A program made the translations under genes and the position numbers. Source: Gammaproteobacteria bacterium (GTDB lineage Bacteria; Pseudomonadota; Gammaproteobacteria; UBA12402). From it: a stretch of DNA of 8,047 nt. Positions 821 to 8,047 of the stretch are shown one piece after another. Positions within the stretch are counted from its first letter, which is position 1. Each line of letters starts with the position of its first letter. The notes beneath the pieces were generated by a model. That model searched no databases. It was not told the origin of the DNA and saw only the letters and a list, made by a program, of their open reading frames with translations. The DNA lies in NCBI GenBank assembly GCA_028282395.1, contig JANQHY010000164.1, positions 1 to 8,047 on the forward strand, written 5' to 3'.

Positions 821-1843
821 TTAGGAGTCGATTGAACGACCAACCGCGTCGCCAACTTTACGTAGTGTTACCATCATCTCACCAAACATCTCTGTGCTAA
901 TCGTCTGTTTAGCATCAGAGATTGAGCGATCTGGGTCGGTATGTACTTCAACAATGACGCCATCTGCCTGAACTGCCATGGCAGCGTTGGCCATCGGAAC
1001 GACTGCATGACGTAAGCCGGTACCGTGGCTAGGGTCAATGATAATCGGCAGGTGGGTTAGTTCGCGTAGAATTGGTACCGCGGCCAAATCAAGAGTATTG
1101 CGACTGTAGCTTTCAAACGTACGAATGCCACGCTCACACAGCATCACATCTGGATTACCGTTACTGAGAATATACTCAGCGGCAAGAAGAAACTCTTTAT
1201 AGGTGGCGGATAGTCCGCGCTTTAATAGCACTGGTCGATTGACACGGCCCACCGCTTTGAGCAGATCGTAGTTCTGCATATTGCGCGCACCAATTTGTAA
1301 AATATCAACGTAGTCAGCTACCTGAGGTAGTGCATCAACGCTCATGACTTCTGAAACCACGAGTAGGTCATTATCATCAGCGGCTTGGCGCATCATTTTC
1401 AATCCTGCTTCGCCTAATCCCTGAAAATCATACGGTGAGGTGCGTGGTTTAAATGCGCCACCACGTAAAATTGTTGCGCCACTTTTTGCTACGGCACTAG
1501 CAATAGCAGAGATCTGTTCGGGTGATTCAATAGAGCAGGGACCCGCCATGACAGCAAAATGGCCGCCACCAATTTTTCTCCCTTTGATATTGATGACTGA
1601 TAGCGCATTATTGAGTACACGACCGACTAATTTGAAGCGATCATTGAAAGGCAAAACTTTTTTTACTAATGGGAGAGTGCTAAATAGTTCCGTTTTCGTG
1701 TATTGGTCAATGCCGCTAATAATGGCAATCGCTTTATCATTACCCTCATTTGCAGTTGCAGTATGAAAGCCCATAAAGGCAAGACGATCTTGCAGTTGTT
1801 GAATTTCCAGTGCAGTACTTTGGTTGTCGAGTAAAAGAATCAT
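821..1843 (-). CDS. aroF: 3-deoxy-7-phosphoheptulonate (DAHP) synthase, type I-beta with N-terminal ferredoxin-like domain
   Basis: Condenses phosphoenolpyruvate and erythrose 4-phosphate into DAHP, the entry step of the shikimate pathway that feeds chorismate to TrpE. It is 340 residues long, as expected for the I-beta form with a regulatory ferredoxin-like domain (about 1-66, as in Thermotoga maritima) ahead of the TIM barrel. Visible motifs are AGPCSIES (100-107), [15 protein letters not shown] (126-140), QIGARN (183-188), LLKRG (206-210), CERGIRTFE (236-244), DPSHGTG (270-276) and VEVH (298-301). The likely metal ligands are C103, H273, E299 and D310. In characterised relatives the N-terminal domain mediates Tyr/Phe feedback inhibition; which ligand works here is unknown. 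The ATG lies 12 nt after the trpA stop, behind AAGAGGT, so it is the last gene of the trp operon. The symbol aroF follows common usage for this family. Confidence 0.95.
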
Positions 1844-1850
1844 AATCGTT

Positions 1851-1857
1851 ACCTCTT
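1851..1857 (-). promoter_or_regulatory. Shine-Dalgarno of aroF
   Basis: On the minus strand AAGAGGT lies 7 nt before the aroF ATG and shares its leading bases with the trpA stop codon TAA. A ribosome ending trpA would therefore stop directly on the aroF initiation site, which supports coupled translation and fixes the start at 1843. Confidence 0.75.
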
Positions 1858-2626
1858 AATTTCTTGGATCAATGGAAGATGCTAATTGACGGATAGTTTC
1901 AGGCGATGCACCTTCGGCCATTGCCTTAACAAAACGTGATGCGACGACAAATCCATCGGCACAGCTCAATGCTTCTGCGGCCATTTCACGTGTAGAAATT
2001 CCAAACCCGGTAGCAACGGGTTGATCACAAAGCGTTTTGATTGTTGAAATACGCTGTTGATAATCTTCTGGTATTGTATTACGTATACCAGTCGTGCCAT
2101 TGCGACAAACATAATAGAGAAATCCACGGCAATATTCACTGATACGCTTAATACGGGCTTCAGGTGTTGAGGGTGAGATTAAATAGATTGGATCAAGACC
2201 TGCAGCGTTGCAGCTATCTAGATAATTGTCTGACTCTTCAAGTGGTAGGTCAACAACTAGCACACCATCAACCCCAGCACTAGCAGCCTCAGTTAAGCTA
2301 TTGGCAAGACCTCGAGCGAGCAGAGGGTTATAGTAGCCAAATAATACGATGGGGATATTCGTGTGTTTTTTGATGGCAGTAATCATCGACAACGCAGCAG
2401 TAAAATCCGTGTTACGTTGTAATGCATCAGCCATTGCTTGCTGAATGACTGGGCCATCTGCCACTGGATCAGAAAATGGTATTCCCACTTCTAAAATATC
2501 AACACCTCCTTCTGCTAGCGCAATGGCTGTCTCTTGTGTCATCTGCTCACCAAGATATCCAGCAGTAACGTAACTAATAAAGGCTTGACGATGATAAAAA
2601 ACATTTTCAATATTACTCATTTTCAT
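1856..2626 (-). CDS. trpA: Tryptophan synthase alpha chain
   Basis: Cleaves indole-3-glycerol phosphate to indole and glyceraldehyde 3-phosphate, and channels indole to TrpB in the cytosolic alpha2-beta2 complex. It is 256 residues, slightly shorter than the 268 of the enteric enzyme. The signature LEVGIPFSDPVADGP (45-59) carries the catalytic acids E46 and D57 (E49 and D60 in Salmonella). Loop 6 reads CRNGTTGIR (174-182), keeping the catalytic-loop Thr (T179). The phosphate-binding end is GFGIST (207-212) and VVASRFV (227-233). In the latter, Ala-Ser replaces the usual Gly-Ser. Of two candidate ATGs (2626 and 2620), the first is preferred because AGGAG sits 6 nt before it. It overlaps trpB by 14 nt and is followed closely by aroF. 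It contains no tryptophan. Confidence 0.97.
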   Translation of the reverse strand: MKMSNIENVFYHRQAFISYVTAGYLGEQMTQETAIALAEGGVDILEVGIPFSDPVADGPVIQQAMADALQRNTDFTAALSMITAIKKHTNIPIVLFGYYNPLLARGLANSLTEAASAGVDGVLVVDLPLEESDNYLDSCNAAGLDPIYLISPSTPEARIKRISEYCRGFLYYVCRNGTTGIRNTIPEDYQQRISTIKTLCDQPVATGFGISTREMAAEALSCADGFVVASRFVKAMAEGASPETIRQLASSIDPRN

Positions 2627-3815
2627 TTAATACTCCTTGGCTAATCAGTTGCGGAAGATCTTTATCGCCACGCCCTGAAAGATTCACCACAACAATATCC
2701 TCTTTAGCAAAACTCTTTGCTTCACGGAGGTAATAGGCCAATGCATGGGAAGACTCGAGTGCGGGAATAATTCCTTCACACTGTGACAGGAGTTTAAACG
2801 CCTGCAGTGCCTCACTATCGCTGGCGCTGGTGTAGTGGGCACGACCCTGCTCATAAAGATCGGCGTGTTGTGGGCCAACCATTGGATAATCAAGTCCCGC
2901 AGAGATGGATGCAGTATTTGCAACCTGGCCATTACCATCTTGAAGTAAATAACTGAGGCAGCCATGTAGTACTCCAGGTCGTCCCCCATTAAATCGTGCT
3001 GCATGCTCGCCCAAGGTTTGACCGTGACCACCGCCTTCGACACCAACAAGTTTCACTGTTGGGTTATCGATAAAAGCAGAAAAAATACCGATAGCATTAG
3101 AGCCACCGCCGACGGCGGCGATAACAACATCGGGTAACTGGCCGGTTAACTGTTGACACTGTTGTGCGGTCTCTTTACCGATTACAGACTGAAAATGTGC
3201 CACCATCTGTGGATAGGGGTAGGGGCCAAGTGCGGAACCTAAACAGTAGTGGCTAGTAGCGAAATTGGCAGCATAATCACGCAGTGCTTCATTCACCGCT
3301 TCTTTTAGTGTTTGACAGCCAGCATCGACCGCTTCAACTTCTGCACCTAACAGACGCATCTTTTCAACATTGGGACGTTGGCGCTTGATATCTGCACTAC
3401 CCATGTAAATTGTGCAAGGGAGGTCTAAATGGGCACAGACGGTTGCCGTTGCAACACCATGTTGCCCAGCACCAGTTTCAGCGATGATACGCTGTTTGCC
3501 AAATTTTTTTGCTAGCAGGCATTGGCCAAGGACGTTATTAATTTTATGGGCGCCGGTGTGTAACATATCTTCACGTTTGAGAAAGAGTCGTGGTCCATTT
3601 GCCGCTTGTTGAAAACGTTTTACTTCAGTGAGTGGCGTTGCTCTACCGGCGTATTGACTGAGTAGTTGATTGAGCTGCTGATTAAACGCATCGTCCTCCT
3701 TCATCTCGGCAAACTGCTCGGCGAGCTGTCTCATTGCTTCAATCAGTGATTCGGGCATGAAGATGCCACCAAATTTTCCATAATGTGTTGCTTGTTGACT
3801 TAATGGTGTTGTCAT
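2613..3815 (-). CDS. trpB: Tryptophan synthase beta chain
   Basis: PLP enzyme that joins indole from TrpA to serine, giving tryptophan. At 400 residues it has the length of the standard TrpB1 form that pairs with TrpA. HTGAHKIN (86-93) holds the PLP lysine K91 (K87 in Salmonella). ETGAGQHG (113-120) holds the catalytic E113. The phosphate-binding loop GGGSNAIG is at 236-243, E354 matches Salmonella E350, and LSGRGDKD (379-386) carries the Ser that contacts the PLP ring. The COMM-domain region before GPYPYP (198-203) is present. The position normally occupied by Trp in the LRDW motif is Tyr181. Its ATG overlaps the trpF stop by one base (TAATG), with GGAG 10 nt upstream. Its 3' end overlaps trpA by 14 nt. 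Confidence 0.98.
   Translation of the reverse strand: MTTPLSQQATHYGKFGGIFMPESLIEAMRQLAEQFAEMKEDDAFNQQLNQLLSQYAGRATPLTEVKRFQQAANGPRLFLKREDMLHTGAHKINNVLGQCLLAKKFGKQRIIAETGAGQHGVATATVCAHLDLPCTIYMGSADIKRQRPNVEKMRLLGAEVEAVDAGCQTLKEAVNEALRDYAANFATSHYCLGSALGPYPYPQMVAHFQSVIGKETAQQCQQLTGQLPDVVIAAVGGGSNAIGIFSAFIDNPTVKLVGVEGGGHGQTLGEHAARFNGGRPGVLHGCLSYLLQDGNGQVANTASISAGLDYPMVGPQHADLYEQGRAHYTSASDSEALQAFKLLSQCEGIIPALESSHALAYYLREAKSFAKEDIVVVNLSGRGDKDLPQLISQGVLNENE
2632..2638 (-). promoter_or_regulatory. Shine-Dalgarno of trpA, inside trpB
   Basis: On the minus strand AAGGAGT lies within the last codons of trpB. AGGAG is 6 nt from the ATG at 2626 and 12 nt from the in-frame ATG at 2620, which favours the upstream start. 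Being inside trpB, it fits coupled translation and equal production of the two tryptophan synthase subunits. Confidence 0.75.
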
Positions 3816-4468
3816 TATAGAAGGTCTCCATCTTGGTGAATTAAGTTAATAATTTTTTCAATGTATGAGAAAGATTTTTTCCCGGGTGCTGTTTCGACAC
3901 CAGAAGAGAGGTCAACTGCATAGGGTTGGCATTGCGTGACTGCTGATAAAATATTGTTGCTGTTTAATCCGCCAGCAAGAAAGAATTGTCCTAAGTTGCG
4001 TGTTTGTGCCAGCACAGTAAAATTAACTGGTTGACCACTACCGCCAACAATATTATCAAATAGCAGTTTATCACGGCGGTGATCAAAAATTTTTTTGCAG
4101 AAATGGCTATCATTAATGATGTTCCCAGCAGAATCAATATGACGTACATAAATACGTTGTAGCGTCGAGGGTAGCTGTTGACTAGCTTGGCGTGCTGTAT
4201 CGCCATGCAGTTGTGCAATATCAATATCACTGCGTTCACAGATCTCAATTATCTGTTCGCTGCAGTGGTTAACAAATACACCAACCACCTGACCGCCTGC
4301 TTCATGGGTGGCAGTGGAAATTTCCTTTGCTTGGGATAATTCAACATAGCGTGTTGATGTAGGGTGAAAAATTAAGCCAATATAATCAACACCAGCTTTA
4401 GCACTGTCATAAGCTAGCTGGGCTGAGGTTAGGCCACAGATTTTGATGCGTGGACAATATCTCTTCAT
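3815..4468 (-). CDS. trpF: Phosphoribosylanthranilate isomerase
   Basis: Converts N-(5-phosphoribosyl)anthranilate to the carboxyphenylaminodeoxyribulose phosphate used by TrpC. It is a free-standing single-domain TIM barrel of 217 residues. KICGLT (9-14) holds the general base C11, QLHGD is at 86-90, and LLFDN (135-139) holds the likely general acid D138. GGSG (142-145), LAGGLNSNN (164-172) and VDLSSGVE (185-192) followed by PGKKS form the phosphate-binding end. The usual FDW after GGSG is VNF here, so Phe150 replaces a common Trp. It overlaps trpC by 4 nt (ATGA) and trpB by 1 nt. Its Shine-Dalgarno is weak (GAGAAG), suggesting translation depends on coupling from trpC. One sampled line (4081-4140) is only 30 percent GC, lower than sampled trpB. 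Confidence 0.96.
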   Translation of the reverse strand: MKRYCPRIKICGLTSAQLAYDSAKAGVDYIGLIFHPTSTRYVELSQAKEISTATHEAGGQVVGVFVNHCSEQIIEICERSDIDIAQLHGDTARQASQQLPSTLQRIYVRHIDSAGNIINDSHFCKKIFDHRRDKLLFDNIVGGSGQPVNFTVLAQTRNLGQFFLAGGLNSNNILSAVTQCQPYAVDLSSGVETAPGKKSFSYIEKIINLIHQDGDLL

Positions 4469-5274
4469 GCTACTTCTCGCATCTGTTGAATAAATCGTGT
4501 TGGATCAGGATGTTTTACCAGTGCTTCACCAATCAATGCTGCATCAAAACCCGCAGCGTGAACTTTTTTGATGTCATCAACAGTTTGAATGCCCGATTCA
4601 GCAATTTTTGTTATCGAGTCGGGAATTTCAGCAGCAAGGGTCAATGATGTGTTAAGGTCGACGGCAAAGTTTTGTAAGTTGCGGTTGTTAATCCCAATAA
4701 TTTCAGCACCGCTATCAACTGCAATATCGAGTTCAGCGCGGTTGTGGACTTCAACAATCGCATCGATGTTGAGGGCTTTAGCAAAATTCAATAGTTCCGC
4801 GGTTTGCTGTTGTAAGACCGCAACAATAAGTAAAATCGCATCGGCACCGAACAGCAATGATTCAATAATCTGTACTTGGTCAATAATAAAATCTTTACGG
4901 AGTACCGGAGTGGTGTGATTTTTCAGGTGTTGTGCAATCTGCTGTAGATCATTAACACTGCCAGAAAAAAAGTTGCGCTCAGTTAGCACCGAGATAGCGC
5001 TAGCGCCGCCGTTAACATAGTTTTCAACTAGCTCAGTTGGCTTGCTAATAGTCGCTAGATTCCCTTTCGAGGGAGAGCGGCGTTTGATTTCACTGATGAT
5101 TGCTACGCCAGGCTGTTGACGTAGGGTATCGCGCAGAGATTTATGCGGTTGGCGCATTTTTAATAGACGCACACGATCACTTTCAAGATCACTATAGTTG
5201 ATAGAGAGTTGTGTTTTGAGTTGCTCCACTTCATTCTGTTTATGGTGAATAATTTCTGTTAAGCGATTATGCAT
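4465..5274 (-). CDS. trpC: Indole-3-glycerol phosphate synthase
   Basis: Closes the indole ring by decarboxylation and dehydration, producing the TrpA substrate. It is a single-domain protein of 269 residues with no TrpF fusion, unlike the enteric enzyme. SEIKRRSPSKG (61-71) holds substrate-binding and catalytic E62 and K64. LRKDFI (125-130) holds K127, the general acid in relatives. EVHN (175-178) holds the catalytic E175. INNRNL (195-200) carries the conserved Asn, and AESGI (225-229) and IGEALV (248-253) form the phosphate site. The start is supported by AGGGAG 8 nt upstream, inside trpD, which it overlaps by 8 nt. At the other end it shares ATGA with trpF. All catalytic positions expected from the Sulfolobus enzyme are present, so it should be active. 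Confidence 0.98.
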   Translation of the reverse strand: MHNRLTEIIHHKQNEVEQLKTQLSINYSDLESDRVRLLKMRQPHKSLRDTLRQQPGVAIISEIKRRSPSKGNLATISKPTELVENYVNGGASAISVLTERNFFSGSVNDLQQIAQHLKNHTTPVLRKDFIIDQVQIIESLLFGADAILLIVAVLQQQTAELLNFAKALNIDAIVEVHNRAELDIAVDSGAEIIGINNRNLQNFAVDLNTSLTLAAEIPDSITKIAESGIQTVDDIKKVHAAGFDAALIGEALVKHPDPTRFIQQMREVA

Positions 5275-6301
5275 GGTTAACGCTCCCTATCTTGCTATTC
5301 TCTTTTTGCGTATAGCTAATTAATTGTTCGATTAGTTGTTGGGCGCTGCCATCATTGAGCTTCTGTTGTGCTAATGCTATACCATCAGCAACACTATCAG
5401 TTAAGCCGTAGAGACGATTCGCCAGACCAGCATTCAATACCAAGGTATCAGCAATTGGGCCGCGCTGACCAGATAGTGCGGCGGTTAACTTTTTAGCATT
5501 TTGTTGTGGATTGCCGCCGCGGAGATCATCAATTTGACAGCGGGAAAATCCGTATTGTTCTGGTCTGATAATGAATGGAGTAATTCTTTTACCAGCGATT
5601 TCCACCACTTCGTTGTCACCAACTGTCGCGATCTCATCAAGACCGCAGCAGTGAAATAGGAGGGCACGCTCTGTTCCCAGTGCCGTCAATATTTTTGCTG
5701 TCGGCAGAAGGCGTTGACGATCACTTAAGCCAATCATAAGGAATTGGGCGCCAGCGGGATTAAGTAGTGGGCCAAGCATGTTAAAGGTTGTCGGTAAAGC
5801 TAATTTCCGTCGTACCTGTTTGATTCTTTTAAATGCGGGATGAAAATTGTTAGCGAAGCAGAAGCCAAAATTAAATTGACGAATCGAATTAGCAACGGTT
5901 TCAGCATCGAGATCGATGTTAATACCCAGTGCCATCATCACATCGGCGGCACCACACAGCGATGTTGAGGCGACATTACCATGTTTGGCAACCGCGACAC
6001 CACATGCAGCAGCGAGGAGCGCTGAAGCGGTAGAGATATTAATCGTATTAAAGCCATCGCCACCACTACCAACAATATCAAGTACGGGTGTTGCTACGTC
6101 AACTTTCACCATATGTTGGCGTAGGGTTGTGACAATTGCACTAATCTCTGCAACGGTTTCACCTTTTGTGCGTAGTAGGGATAGAAATGCACCCGCTTGA
6201 ACCTCGTTGTCACTGACAATCATCTCATTAATCGCCTGTTTAACCTCCTCTGTTGTTAATGTTTGGCGCTGCATTAATTTTTCAATAGCGTGTTTTAACA
6301 T
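5267..6301 (-). CDS. trpD: Anthranilate phosphoribosyltransferase
   Basis: Transfers phosphoribose from PRPP to anthranilate, the second dedicated step. It is 344 residues, normal for the stand-alone form with an N-terminal helical domain and a PRPP-binding alpha/beta domain. Visible motifs are GSGGDG (78-83, normally GTGGDG), NISTAS (88-93), KHGN (106-109), FHPAFK (153-158), QVRRKL (162-167) with the anthranilate-contacting Arg, FNMLGPLLNP (173-182) and the metal-binding LDEI (221-224, D222 and E223). It is unusual that the Arg following KHGN is Val110 and that the next segment reads STSLCGAAD instead of the common SSxSGxAD. The start at 6301 overlaps the end of trpG by 7 nt, with GAGGG just upstream. 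It is not fused to TrpG. The retained DE and Arg residues argue for an active enzyme. Confidence 0.96.
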   Translation of the reverse strand: MLKHAIEKLMQRQTLTTEEVKQAINEMIVSDNEVQAGAFLSLLRTKGETVAEISAIVTTLRQHMVKVDVATPVLDIVGSGGDGFNTINISTASALLAAACGVAVAKHGNVASTSLCGAADVMMALGINIDLDAETVANSIRQFNFGFCFANNFHPAFKRIKQVRRKLALPTTFNMLGPLLNPAGAQFLMIGLSDRQRLLPTAKILTALGTERALLFHCCGLDEIATVGDNEVVEIAGKRITPFIIRPEQYGFSRCQIDDLRGGNPQQNAKKLTAALSGQRGPIADTLVLNAGLANRLYGLTDSVADGIALAQQKLNDGSAQQLIEQLISYTQKENSKIGSVNHA

Positions 6302-6879
6302 GGTGCCCTCGCAACACAGTGGTTAAGAAAATTTCCCATTACCTCGCTACCTGTTTGTGACAAAATAGACTCGGGGTGAAACTGCAGGCCAAAACAGGGG
6401 TAGTGTTCATGACGAATGCCCATGATAATGCCATGGCGATTTTCCGCTTCTATTTTTAATTGTGTCGGAAGTGAATGACGTTCAACAATTAATGAGTGGT
6501 AGCGTCCAGCTTCAAAGGGTAAGGGTAAATTCTGATAAAGTTGGCGACGATTATGAAAAACAAGATCGGTTTTGCCGTGAACAATTTGCTGTGACTGAAT
6601 GATTTTGGCGCCAAATGCTGCAGCGATTGCTTGATGACCAAGGCAGATGCCTAATATTGGTGTCGTTGCAGCCATTGCGTTTACTAGTTCAATGCAGATG
6701 CCGGCATTTTCTGGTCGCCCTGGACCAGGCGATAGAATAATCGCTTCAGGTTGTAGCGCTTTAACTTCAGCAATCGTAATTTTGTCGTTGCGTACAACAC
6801 GGACGTCGGTTATCTCTTGTGCGACCATTTGATAGAGGTTGTAGGTAAAGCTGTCGTAGTTATCAATAAGTAAAATCAT
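6295..6879 (-). CDS. trpG: Anthranilate synthase component II, glutamine amidotransferase
   Basis: Class I glutamine amidotransferase that releases ammonia from glutamine for TrpE. It is 194 residues, the usual length for a free subunit. LLIDNYDSFTYNL (3-15) is the classic N-terminal motif. The oxyanion-region SPGPGRP is at 50-56, the nucleophile C79 is in GICLGHQ (77-83), HGK is at 101-103, RYHSL at 126-130, and the catalytic His168 and Glu170 are in QFHPES (166-171). The ATG shares ATGA with the trpE stop and has GGAG (6887-6890) 7 nt upstream inside trpE. Because it sits directly between trpE and trpD, anthranilate synthesis is its main role. A shared role with PabB in folate synthesis is possible in some bacteria and cannot be tested from this window. 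Confidence 0.97.
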   Translation of the reverse strand: MILLIDNYDSFTYNLYQMVAQEITDVRVVRNDKITIAEVKALQPEAIILSPGPGRPENAGICIELVNAMAATTPILGICLGHQAIAAAFGAKIIQSQQIVHGKTDLVFHNRRQLYQNLPLPFEAGRYHSLIVERHSLPTQLKIEAENRHGIIMGIRHEHYPCFGLQFHPESILSQTGSEVMGNFLNHCVARAPC

Positions 6880-8047
6880 AATGCTTCTCCGCTTGCTAGG
6901 GCGATACCATTTAAAATGGCACTCGCTTTTTGACGTGATTCATTGGCTTCGGTTTGTGGATCAGAGTCAAAGACAATGCCGCCGCCAGCTCTAACCGTTG
7001 CTACCCCATCTTTGATAACTGCCATGCGGATAGCAATACAGCTATTAAGGTTGCCGCAGTTATCAATGATGCAGATAGCGCCACCGTAAACACCACGGCG
7101 TGACGACTCGATTTCATCTATAAGCTCCATAGCGCGGATTTTTGGTGCACCACTGAGTGTGCCGGCTGGAAAAGTACGTTTGAGGACATCGAATGCATCG
7201 AGCCCTGGCTGTAATTGGCCACGTACAATCGATGCCATATGCATAATACGTGTATATTTCTCAATATTGCGTAACGCGTCAATTGTGACGCTGCCCGGTA
7301 GTGATACTGAACCGACATCGTTACGCGCAAGGTCAACTAGCATCATATGTTCAGCGATCTCTTTTTCATCATTGGCTAACTCCTCTTCCAGTTTTGCATC
7401 TTCCTCAGCAGTTTTACCGCGTGGGCGTGAGCCAGCAAGTGGTGAAGATTCGACGATGCCATTTTCTATCTGAACCAACTGCTCTGGTGAAGCGCCAGCT
7501 AAAACAAAATCGTCACATTCGAGATAGAACATATAGGGTGAAGGGTTAGAGAAATGTAGTGCACGGTAGATATCAATCGGGCGTGCTGCAGTACGAATGC
7601 TATATTCACGTGAAATAACCACTTGGAAAACATCACCATTAATAATGTATTGCTGTGCCTGCTCTATCATCCGACAGAAGTTTTCATCATCAATATTCGT
7701 TTCAATTTCGATCTCTGTTGCTGCATGTTGGCCAAGTGTTTCATCATGTTTGAGTTGTTGTGGACCATTAAGCAGGGTTGTGGCAATGTCATCGATATGT
7801 GCCATTGCTTCCTGATAGAGCTGTTCTAGTTCGCCCGAGCGGGTATCTACAGCAGTAGCAATCACAACTTTACCGCTACGGTGATCAAAGGTAATACTGT
7901 CATTGCAGAAACGGAAAAACATCAGCGGTGGGCTATTTTCACTGCTGTGGCGATCGGGAATGTCCTCAATTAAACGGATAGCATCATGGCTTACGAAGCC
8001 GATCATGCCACCGATCACTTTTGCTAAAGGGTGGTCACTGTGAGTAG
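6876..8047 (-). CDS. trpE: Anthranilate synthase component I, 5' end missing
   Basis: Makes anthranilate from chorismate with ammonia supplied by TrpG. The reading frame is open to the right edge, so the gene is cut there: 389 residues plus two bases are visible, and roughly the first 100-130 are outside. A GTG at 8016-8018 could be mistaken for the start, but in-frame codons upstream encode family-like sequence (HPLAK before it). Numbering the visible fragment, PLAGSRPRG (202-210) has Ala where PabB enzymes usually have Lys, supporting anthranilate synthase. KEIAEHMMLVDLARND (228-243) and PAGTLSGAPK (293-302) follow. H269 matches E. coli H398. AGGGIVFDSDP (353-363) precedes the Mg-binding E366 and E369. 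The tryptophan feedback site (LLES region) lies in the missing N-terminus. The stop is TGA in an ATGA overlap with trpG. Confidence 0.96.
   Translation of the reverse strand, partial: THSDHPLAKVIGGMIGFVSHDAIRLIEDIPDRHSSENSPPLMFFRFCNDSITFDHRSGKVVIATAVDTRSGELEQLYQEAMAHIDDIATTLLNGPQQLKHDETLGQHAATEIEIETNIDDENFCRMIEQAQQYIINGDVFQVVISREYSIRTAARPIDIYRALHFSNPSPYMFYLECDDFVLAGASPEQLVQIENGIVESSPLAGSRPRGKTAEEDAKLEEELANDEKEIAEHMMLVDLARNDVGSVSLPGSVTIDALRNIEKYTRIMHMASIVRGQLQPGLDAFDVLKRTFPAGTLSGAPKIRAMELIDEIESSRRGVYGGAICIIDNCGNLNSCIAIRMAVIKDGVATVRAGGGIVFDSDPQTEANESRQKASAILNGIALASGEAL

What the first reader, a model, noticed from the sequence alone, without database searches (positions are those of the whole stretch)
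821..8047. A tryptophan operon whose visible proteins contain no tryptophan
Reading all eight operon proteins (TrpE fragment 389, TrpG 194, TrpD 344, TrpC 269, TrpF 217, TrpB 400, TrpA 256, AroF 340; about 2,409 residues), I find no Trp at all. The adjacent phosphatase has five in 264 (W47, W72, W83, W98, W248). At the roughly 1 percent Trp typical of proteins, about two dozen would be expected. Low use of an amino acid in the enzymes that make it (low cognate bias) is a known trend, but a complete absence across the set is an extreme case. Inference: it would let the pathway be translated during severe tryptophan starvation, for example in a host that depletes tryptophan. Part of the effect is inherited, since several of these families are naturally Trp-poor.
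Basis: partly seen in the sequence, partly recalled or inferred. Interest (0 to 1): 0.7.

Follow-up and report, generated by a model that had tools for sequence, protein, structure and literature searches.

The report
Trp operon enzymes without any tryptophan
The tryptophan-making enzymes readable in this bacterial sequence contain no tryptophan themselves, an extreme case of a known trend that is shared with close relatives and includes replacement of two tryptophans kept by nearly all the other bacteria examined.

Summary
In detail: 0 Trp in 2,409 residues of eight readable operon proteins. "Two dozen expected" is a proteome figure (about 27). The seven trp enzymes carry 5-14 Trp in 22 complete gammaproteobacterial sets, 2-11 in 13 diverse sets and 0-6 in ten operons of the window's type. 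One of those ten, G099, is also Trp-free. The trait is therefore unusual among bacteria but belongs to a Trp-poor operon lineage; published Coxiella counts sum to 1 in 2,075 (PMC3937554). Two near-universal residues are replaced: E. coli TrpB W177 (Trp in 79 of 79 comparison loci) is Tyr here, and the TrpF residue matching E. coli TrpC W392 (71 of 75) is Phe. Tyr at the TrpB site marks a 43-row clade, 42 rows Trp-free, although 9 of the ten same-type operons still have Trp there. Relatives' dnaE and alaS have normal Trp. Selection for translation during Trp shortage is the best explanation, untested; depletion by a host is speculation. The TrpE N-terminus and the host genome are not available.

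The parts
821..1843 (-). aroF: class I-beta type DAHP synthase, last gene of the operon, 340 aa, 0 Trp
   Evidence: NF006421 444.3 bits (cut-off 335), TIGR01361 371.3 bits (cut-off 267.75); 0 Trp; 62 of the 120 best homologues are Trp-free
1856..2626 (-). trpA, 256 aa, 0 Trp
   Evidence: TIGR00262 231.7 bits, over cut-off
2613..3815 (-). trpB, 400 aa, 0 Trp
   Evidence: TIGR00263 589.2 bits, over cut-off; 47 of the 120 best homologues are Trp-free; 0 of 30 gamma and 0 of 49 diverse are
3273..3275 (-). TrpB residue 181, Tyr (TAT), at the site of E. coli Trp177
   Evidence: Trp in 30 of 30 gamma, 49 of 49 diverse and 9 of 10 same-type operons; in the 120 best homologues 67 Trp and 53 Tyr
3815..4468 (-). 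trpF, 217 aa, 0 Trp
   Evidence: best model NF002298, 157.6 bits, below its cut-off of 215
4019..4021 (-). TrpF residue 150, Phe (TTT), aligned with E. coli TrpC W392 (numbering of the translated CDS)
   Evidence: Trp in 29 of 29 gamma, 42 of 46 diverse and 2 of 10 same-type operons
4465..5274 (-). trpC, 269 aa, 0 Trp
   Evidence: NF001377 286.6 bits, over cut-off of 260; 115 of the 120 best homologues are Trp-free
5267..6301 (-). trpD, 344 aa, 0 Trp
   Evidence: TIGR01245 343.4 bits, over cut-off
6295..6879 (-). trpG, 194 aa, 0 Trp
   Evidence: TIGR00566 216.9 bits, over cut-off
6876..8045 (-). trpE fragment (C-terminal 389 aa), 0 Trp; N-terminus outside the window
   Evidence: TIGR00564 432.7 bits, profile positions 89-452 of 455, below the cut-off of 517.7 as a fragment

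Best explanation
This is a compact trpE-G-D-C-F-B-A-aroF operon of an uncultured gammaproteobacterium that looks Legionellales-like. It belongs to an operon lineage, with relatives in Coxiella-like and Simkania-type bacteria, in which tryptophan is nearly absent from the enzymes that make it; here it is absent from everything readable. Shown: no Trp codon in 2,409 codons; Tyr and Phe at two sites that are Trp in nearly all comparison loci; a clade of TrpB that shares the first change; normal Trp content of two housekeeping proteins in relatives. Inferred: selection for low cognate bias, so that ribosomes can still complete these enzymes when charged Trp-tRNA is scarce and synthesis can restart. 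At least part of the loss is inherited, so this organism's present environment need not be the cause.
For: 0 of 2,409. Same seven genes elsewhere: gamma 5-14 (22 complete sets), diverse 2-11 (13), same-type operons 0-6 (10). Sites. TrpB tree of 149 rows: starred clade of 43 rows (SH-aLRT 99), all Tyr, 42 Trp-free over the columns aligned to the window; 49 of the 55 Tyr rows are Trp-free. Of 13 long proteins with both TrpF and TrpB Pfam domains, 12 have no Trp at all. Controls: dnaE mean 8.75 Trp in 8 hosts of same-type operons against 8.40 in 20 other gammaproteobacteria; alaS 6.38 against 6.80. Phe and Tyr are not depleted: 3.53% and 2.42% in the window, 3.14% and 2.45% in the gamma sample. 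Low cognate bias for Trp, measured on the final enzyme of the pathway, is reported over 1,526 organisms (PMC4209129, passages).
Against: On the means of same-type operons zero has a Poisson chance of 0.055 (0.039 with AroF), so it is the low end of a range. Nine of the ten same-type operons from genomes keep Trp at the TrpB site, so loss there is not general in the lineage. The tree is a quick one with SH-aLRT only. Only two control families were tested, and in relatives. There are no fitness, expression or starvation data; host and environment are unknown.
Confidence: 0.6

Rival explanations
1. Inherited neutrality: an ancestor of this sub-lineage lost the conserved tryptophans through tolerated Tyr/Phe swaps, and descendants keep the state without present selection.
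For: Tyr at the TrpB site is strongly clustered on the tree (6 changes against a shuffled mean of 44.7); TrpC is Trp-free in 115 of 120 homologues anyway; TrpG and TrpC are Trp-free in all ten same-type operons.
Against: The two sites are otherwise nearly invariant (79 of 79 and 71 of 75); absence covers TrpB, TrpF and AroF together while dnaE and alaS of relatives are unchanged; the tree needs at least 6 W/Y changes, 4 of them forced by starred branches, so Tyr probably arose or was lost more than once.
Confidence: 0.25
2. Chance at the low end of a Trp-poor lineage: no cause beyond families that average about three tryptophans per seven enzymes.
For: Poisson P(0) 0.055 for seven genes, 0.039 with AroF, on the means of ten same-type operons.
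Against: G099 is Trp-free too, and of 37 contig-length groups holding at least two of TrpC, TrpB and AroF, 26 have no Trp (pairing inferred from equal contig length, and close homologues only).
Confidence: 0.1
3. Economy: tryptophan is a costly residue and is removed to save synthesis cost, not to survive starvation.
For: Trp biosynthesis is described as particularly costly (PMC3937554, passage).
Against: Phe and Tyr are not reduced, and dnaE, alaS and proteome samples of relatives are not Trp-poor.
Confidence: 0.05

Closest known systems
Trp operon of Coxiella burnetii as tabulated in PMC3937554 (section with Table 1 read; passages)
   Same: Almost Trp-free enzymes (0/493, 0/121, 0/334, 0/258, 1/601, 0/268: 1 in 2,075 by my sum); a Coxiella TrpC is 48% identical to the window's (P0090)
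   Different: TrpF and TrpB fused, no aroA in the operon, trpR elsewhere, trpG and trpD called pseudogenes by that paper; one Trp remains
Trp operon of Simkania negevensis (trpR/E/G/D/C/F/B/A/aroA in E. coli names; PMC3937554), and the Chlamydiia MAG L001
   Same: Same gene order including the terminal DAHP synthase
   Different: Simkania's seven enzymes have 5 Trp in 2,126 aa (my sum of Table 1) and L001's eight have 5 in 2,335; the window has none in 2,409; trpR cannot be seen in the window
Low cognate bias of amino acid biosynthetic enzymes (PMC4209129, passages; Alves and Savageau 2005 is cited there, not read)
   Same: Fewer cognate residues in the pathway than in the proteome
   Different: Complete absence in all eight readable proteins, with replacement of residues conserved elsewhere
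E. coli K-12 trp operon (L140)
   Same: TrpA and TrpE are Trp-free
   Different: TrpB W177, three in TrpC, one in TrpD: 5 in 2,169 aa; leader peptide trpL with 2 Trp

Membership tests
Simkania/Coxiella-type compact trp operon | Gene order trpE-G-D-C-F-B-A followed by a DAHP synthase gene | tested here: met
   Coordinates and families; same order in G119, G099, G323, G224, G107 and L001, while no aroF was found in the regions of G034, G179, G374 and G252
Simkania/Coxiella-type compact trp operon | Overlapping neighbouring genes (reported for Simkania in PMC3937554) | tested here: met
   E/G, G/D, D/C, C/F, F/B and B/A share 1-14 bases in the ORF list; trpA and aroF are 12 bases apart
Simkania/Coxiella-type compact trp operon | trpR at the head of the operon | not testable with these tools
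   The window ends inside trpE. In ten relatives a trpR-like gene lies directly upstream of trpE in 6, just downstream of trpA in 3, and was not found in 1
Simkania/Coxiella-type compact trp operon | Common ancestry of the enzymes | tested here: met
   For TrpB only: a branch (SH-aLRT 94; quick tree) parts 130 rows, with the window, nine same-type operons from genomes and L001, from 19 rows that hold all ten other gammaproteobacterial rows. Ancestry of the other enzymes was not tested by tree
Low cognate bias | Cognate residue rarer in the pathway than in the proteome | tested here: met
   0% against 1.08-1.42% in proteome samples of six relatives; the window's own proteome is not held
Low cognate bias | Advantage in recovering from starvation | not testable with these tools
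   Needs experiment
Down-Trp selection for persistence in a host (Lo et al. 2012, known only as cited in PMC3937554) | A host that depletes tryptophan and a persistent state | not tested
   Host and lifestyle of the window's organism are unknown

The most novel reading that the evidence does not exclude
A lineage of Legionellales-like bacteria has made its whole tryptophan pathway independent of tryptophan, while the repressor TrpR beside it keeps one or two tryptophans within its first 18 residues (Trp-free relative G099: residues 10 and 18). During starvation ribosomes would stall on the repressor but pass through the enzymes, so the code itself would act as a switch favouring enzyme over repressor synthesis. 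For the window this is a prediction: its trpR is not visible.
Probability: 0.12. Interest if true: 0.7.

Novelty: new member of a known kind. Interest (0 to 1): 0.45.

Why it matters
Cognate bias is usually a statistical trend over proteomes. A pathway from which the cognate residue is absent altogether, including at sites where nearly all other bacteria examined keep it, offers natural replacements (Tyr for TrpB W177, Phe for the TrpF site) with which the old hypothesis can be tested in a laboratory strain: does a Trp-free pathway restart faster when tryptophan runs out? It also shows that the expectation must come from the enzyme families and operon lineage (about 3-9), not from the proteome (about 27).

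Tried and rejected
Rejected: one organism's oddity - G099 is equally Trp-free over the window-equivalent lengths and in its TrpE N-terminus, and a 43-row TrpB clade shares the state. Rejected for relatives, untestable for the window's own genome: Trp poor genome-wide - proteome samples, dnaE and alaS are normal. Rejected: Trp hidden by TGA recoding - TGA ends genes here and no in-frame stops occur. No sign of a mobile origin at the sensitivity used: no megablast match in the plasmid collection and no TrpB relative by the pattern scan of viral contigs.

Led nowhere: the TrpD scan of genome contigs (24 pattern matches, none a relative); whole-genome access. Paper searches: 0 papers; 1, unrelated; in their listings I saw no report of a fully Trp-free trp operon. 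In one search the TrpF parts of fused proteins were cut at a fixed length and their reading at the TrpF site (mostly Thr) looks misaligned, so only their total Trp counts are used; P0126, counted among 14 long proteins, lacks the TrpF domain (and has 5 Trp) and is left out of the fusion count. One search picked wrong reading frames for at least two rows (G151, G125); one search replaces it.

Rows dropped before counts: G031 (TrpC match with stops, only TrpF long enough); G012 (no TrpC place listed); G323 from both housekeeping controls, G188 from dnaE and G277 from alaS (split or partial matches); sets lacking one of seven genes from the 'complete' counts (8 of 30 gamma rows, E. coli included among the 30; 66 of 79 diverse rows); eight of ten further gamma regions (L130-L134, L136, L137, L139) were not used. 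G179/G374 and G224/G107 are near-duplicates, so ten same-type operons are about eight. Homologue counts refer to the best 120 of about 8,000 scored.

Full report
OBSERVATION. Eight ORFs on the minus strand encode AroF, TrpA, TrpB, TrpF, TrpC, TrpD, TrpG and the C-terminal 389 residues of TrpE. They hold 2,409 residues and no tryptophan; the neighbouring phosphatase holds 5 in 264. TGA is an ordinary stop here.

HOST. No genome is held for the window. The nearest proteins, TrpC at 93%, TrpB at 90% and AroF at 96%, are each named as from a metagenome-assembled 'Gammaproteobacteria bacterium'. Further named hits among the best 120 include Pseudomonadota and Legionellales MAGs, Candidatus Paracoxiella and Coxiella burnetii, but also a few from other groups, such as Melainabacteria and Riflebacteria for TrpB. 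Among 368 sampled genomes of the class, 321 with a TrpC match, the five best matches lie in genomes of 1.4-2.0 Mb; the sixth is 3.9 Mb. In the small orders of three of them trp genes are patchy: 5 of 16 genomes have a TrpC match, one of these very weak, and 1 of 11 and 1 of 3 have a TrpB match of this kind. 'Legionellales-like' is my inference from these names.

EXPECTATION. Against proteome samples of six relatives (1.08-1.42% Trp) 26-34 Trp would be expected, and no random protein set was Trp-free. That baseline ignores that the families are poor in Trp. I counted Trp in the seven trp enzymes, with TrpE trimmed to the window's fragment. Gammaproteobacterial sets with all seven genes have 5-14, median 8 (22 sets, E. 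coli 5). Diverse bacteria have 2-11, median 5 (13 sets). Operons of the window's type have: G034 6, G179 5, G374 5, G119 3, G252 3, G323 1, G224 1, G107 1, G099 0, and the Chlamydiia MAG L001 4. Poisson chances of zero on these three baselines are 1.2e-4, 2.6e-4 and 0.055. G099 is Trp-free in all eight enzymes over the window-equivalent lengths and in its TrpE N-terminus.

WHICH TRYPTOPHANS ARE MISSING. Several families lack conserved Trp, so their zeros mean little: TrpC is Trp-free in 115 of 120 homologues. Two sites matter. E. coli TrpB W177 is Trp in 30 of 30 gamma and 49 of 49 diverse loci, and in 9 of 10 same-type operons, but Tyr (TAT) in the window and Tyr in G099. The TrpF site at E. 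coli TrpC W392 is Trp in 29 of 29 gamma and 42 of 46 diverse loci, in 2 of 10 same-type operons, and Phe in the window (TTT) and in G099. Phe and Tyr contents are ordinary.

LINEAGE. On a tree of 149 TrpBs (quick search, LG+G4, SH-aLRT; four Trp-variable columns left out) the window sits in a starred clade of 43 rows, all with Tyr at the site, 42 of them Trp-free over the columns aligned to the window; the whole tree needs at least six W/Y changes, four forced by starred branches. Of 55 Tyr rows 49 are Trp-free. Of 13 proteins with both TrpF and TrpB domains, 12 have no Trp over their whole length. Of 37 contig-length groups with at least two of TrpC, TrpB and AroF, 26 have no Trp (pairing by equal contig length is an inference, and the lengths were entered by hand, not exhaustively).

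CONTROL. dnaE has a mean of 8.75 Trp in 8 hosts of same-type operons against 8.40 in 20 other gammaproteobacteria, and alaS 6.38 against 6.80. Among the two families tested, and in relatives only, there is no general loss of Trp.

HOW IT PROBABLY WORKS. Shown: the readable coding sequence has no Trp codon. Reported (PMC4209129, passages): tryptophan has a low cognate bias in almost every proteome studied, measured on the final enzyme, and a model links low bias to recovery from starvation. Inferred: the enzymes of this operon can be completed when Trp-tRNA is uncharged. In relatives a trpR-like gene lies beside the operon in 9 of 10 regions and, taking the first Met of the frame as start, carries 1-2 Trp within its first 18 residues. 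A starvation block on the repressor while enzymes are still made is a possible addition that cannot be seen in the window.

WHAT IS KNOWN. PMC3937554 (one section with Table 1 read, passages) gives Trp counts for chlamydial and Coxiella Trp enzymes, describes the Simkania operon with the same order and a terminal DAHP synthase, says these enzymes all have low Trp content as expected from cognate bias, and proposes transfer of such an operon to Coxiella. By my sum Coxiella's enzymes have 1 Trp in 2,075. The window extends that series from one to none. In the listings of seven searches I saw no report of a fully Trp-free trp operon or of a TrpB clade with Tyr at the W177 site; the library lacks most subscription papers, so this is weak evidence of absence.

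VERDICT. A real and extreme but not isolated case of low cognate bias; the causal story is plausible and untested.

Noticed in passing
9-803: Phosphatase of the HAD/acid phosphatase kind, possibly secreted, distantly similar to the 5'-nucleotidase lipoprotein e(P4) family (94.6 bits, cut-off 216.05), converging with aroF.
   Followed up: no
L121, L122 and less perfectly L120, upstream of trpE: A palindrome of the form TTGTAA..TTACAA in the last 150 bases before trpE, possibly a TrpR operator; not tested against chance.
   Followed up: no
L126, L128, L129 between trpR and trpE: An inverted repeat (CTCCTGGTGCTA..TAGTACCAGGAG in L126) with a short loop between repressor and first enzyme gene; function unknown.
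   Followed up: no
L120, L121, L125: A trpR-like gene lies just downstream of trpA, where other relatives have aroF; no aroF was found in these regions.
   Followed up: partly
L091 / L127 (G031): A 1.7 Mb genome whose TrpC match contains stop codons and whose neighbouring trp matches are mostly partial: an apparently decaying trp operon.
   Followed up: no
L001 5124-12863: A Chlamydiia MAG carries trpR-E-G-D-C-F-B-A-aroF in the order described for Simkania.
   Followed up: partly
L246, L276 (G323): dnaE and alaS matches are split in this genome, suggesting assembly errors or real frameshifts.
   Followed up: no
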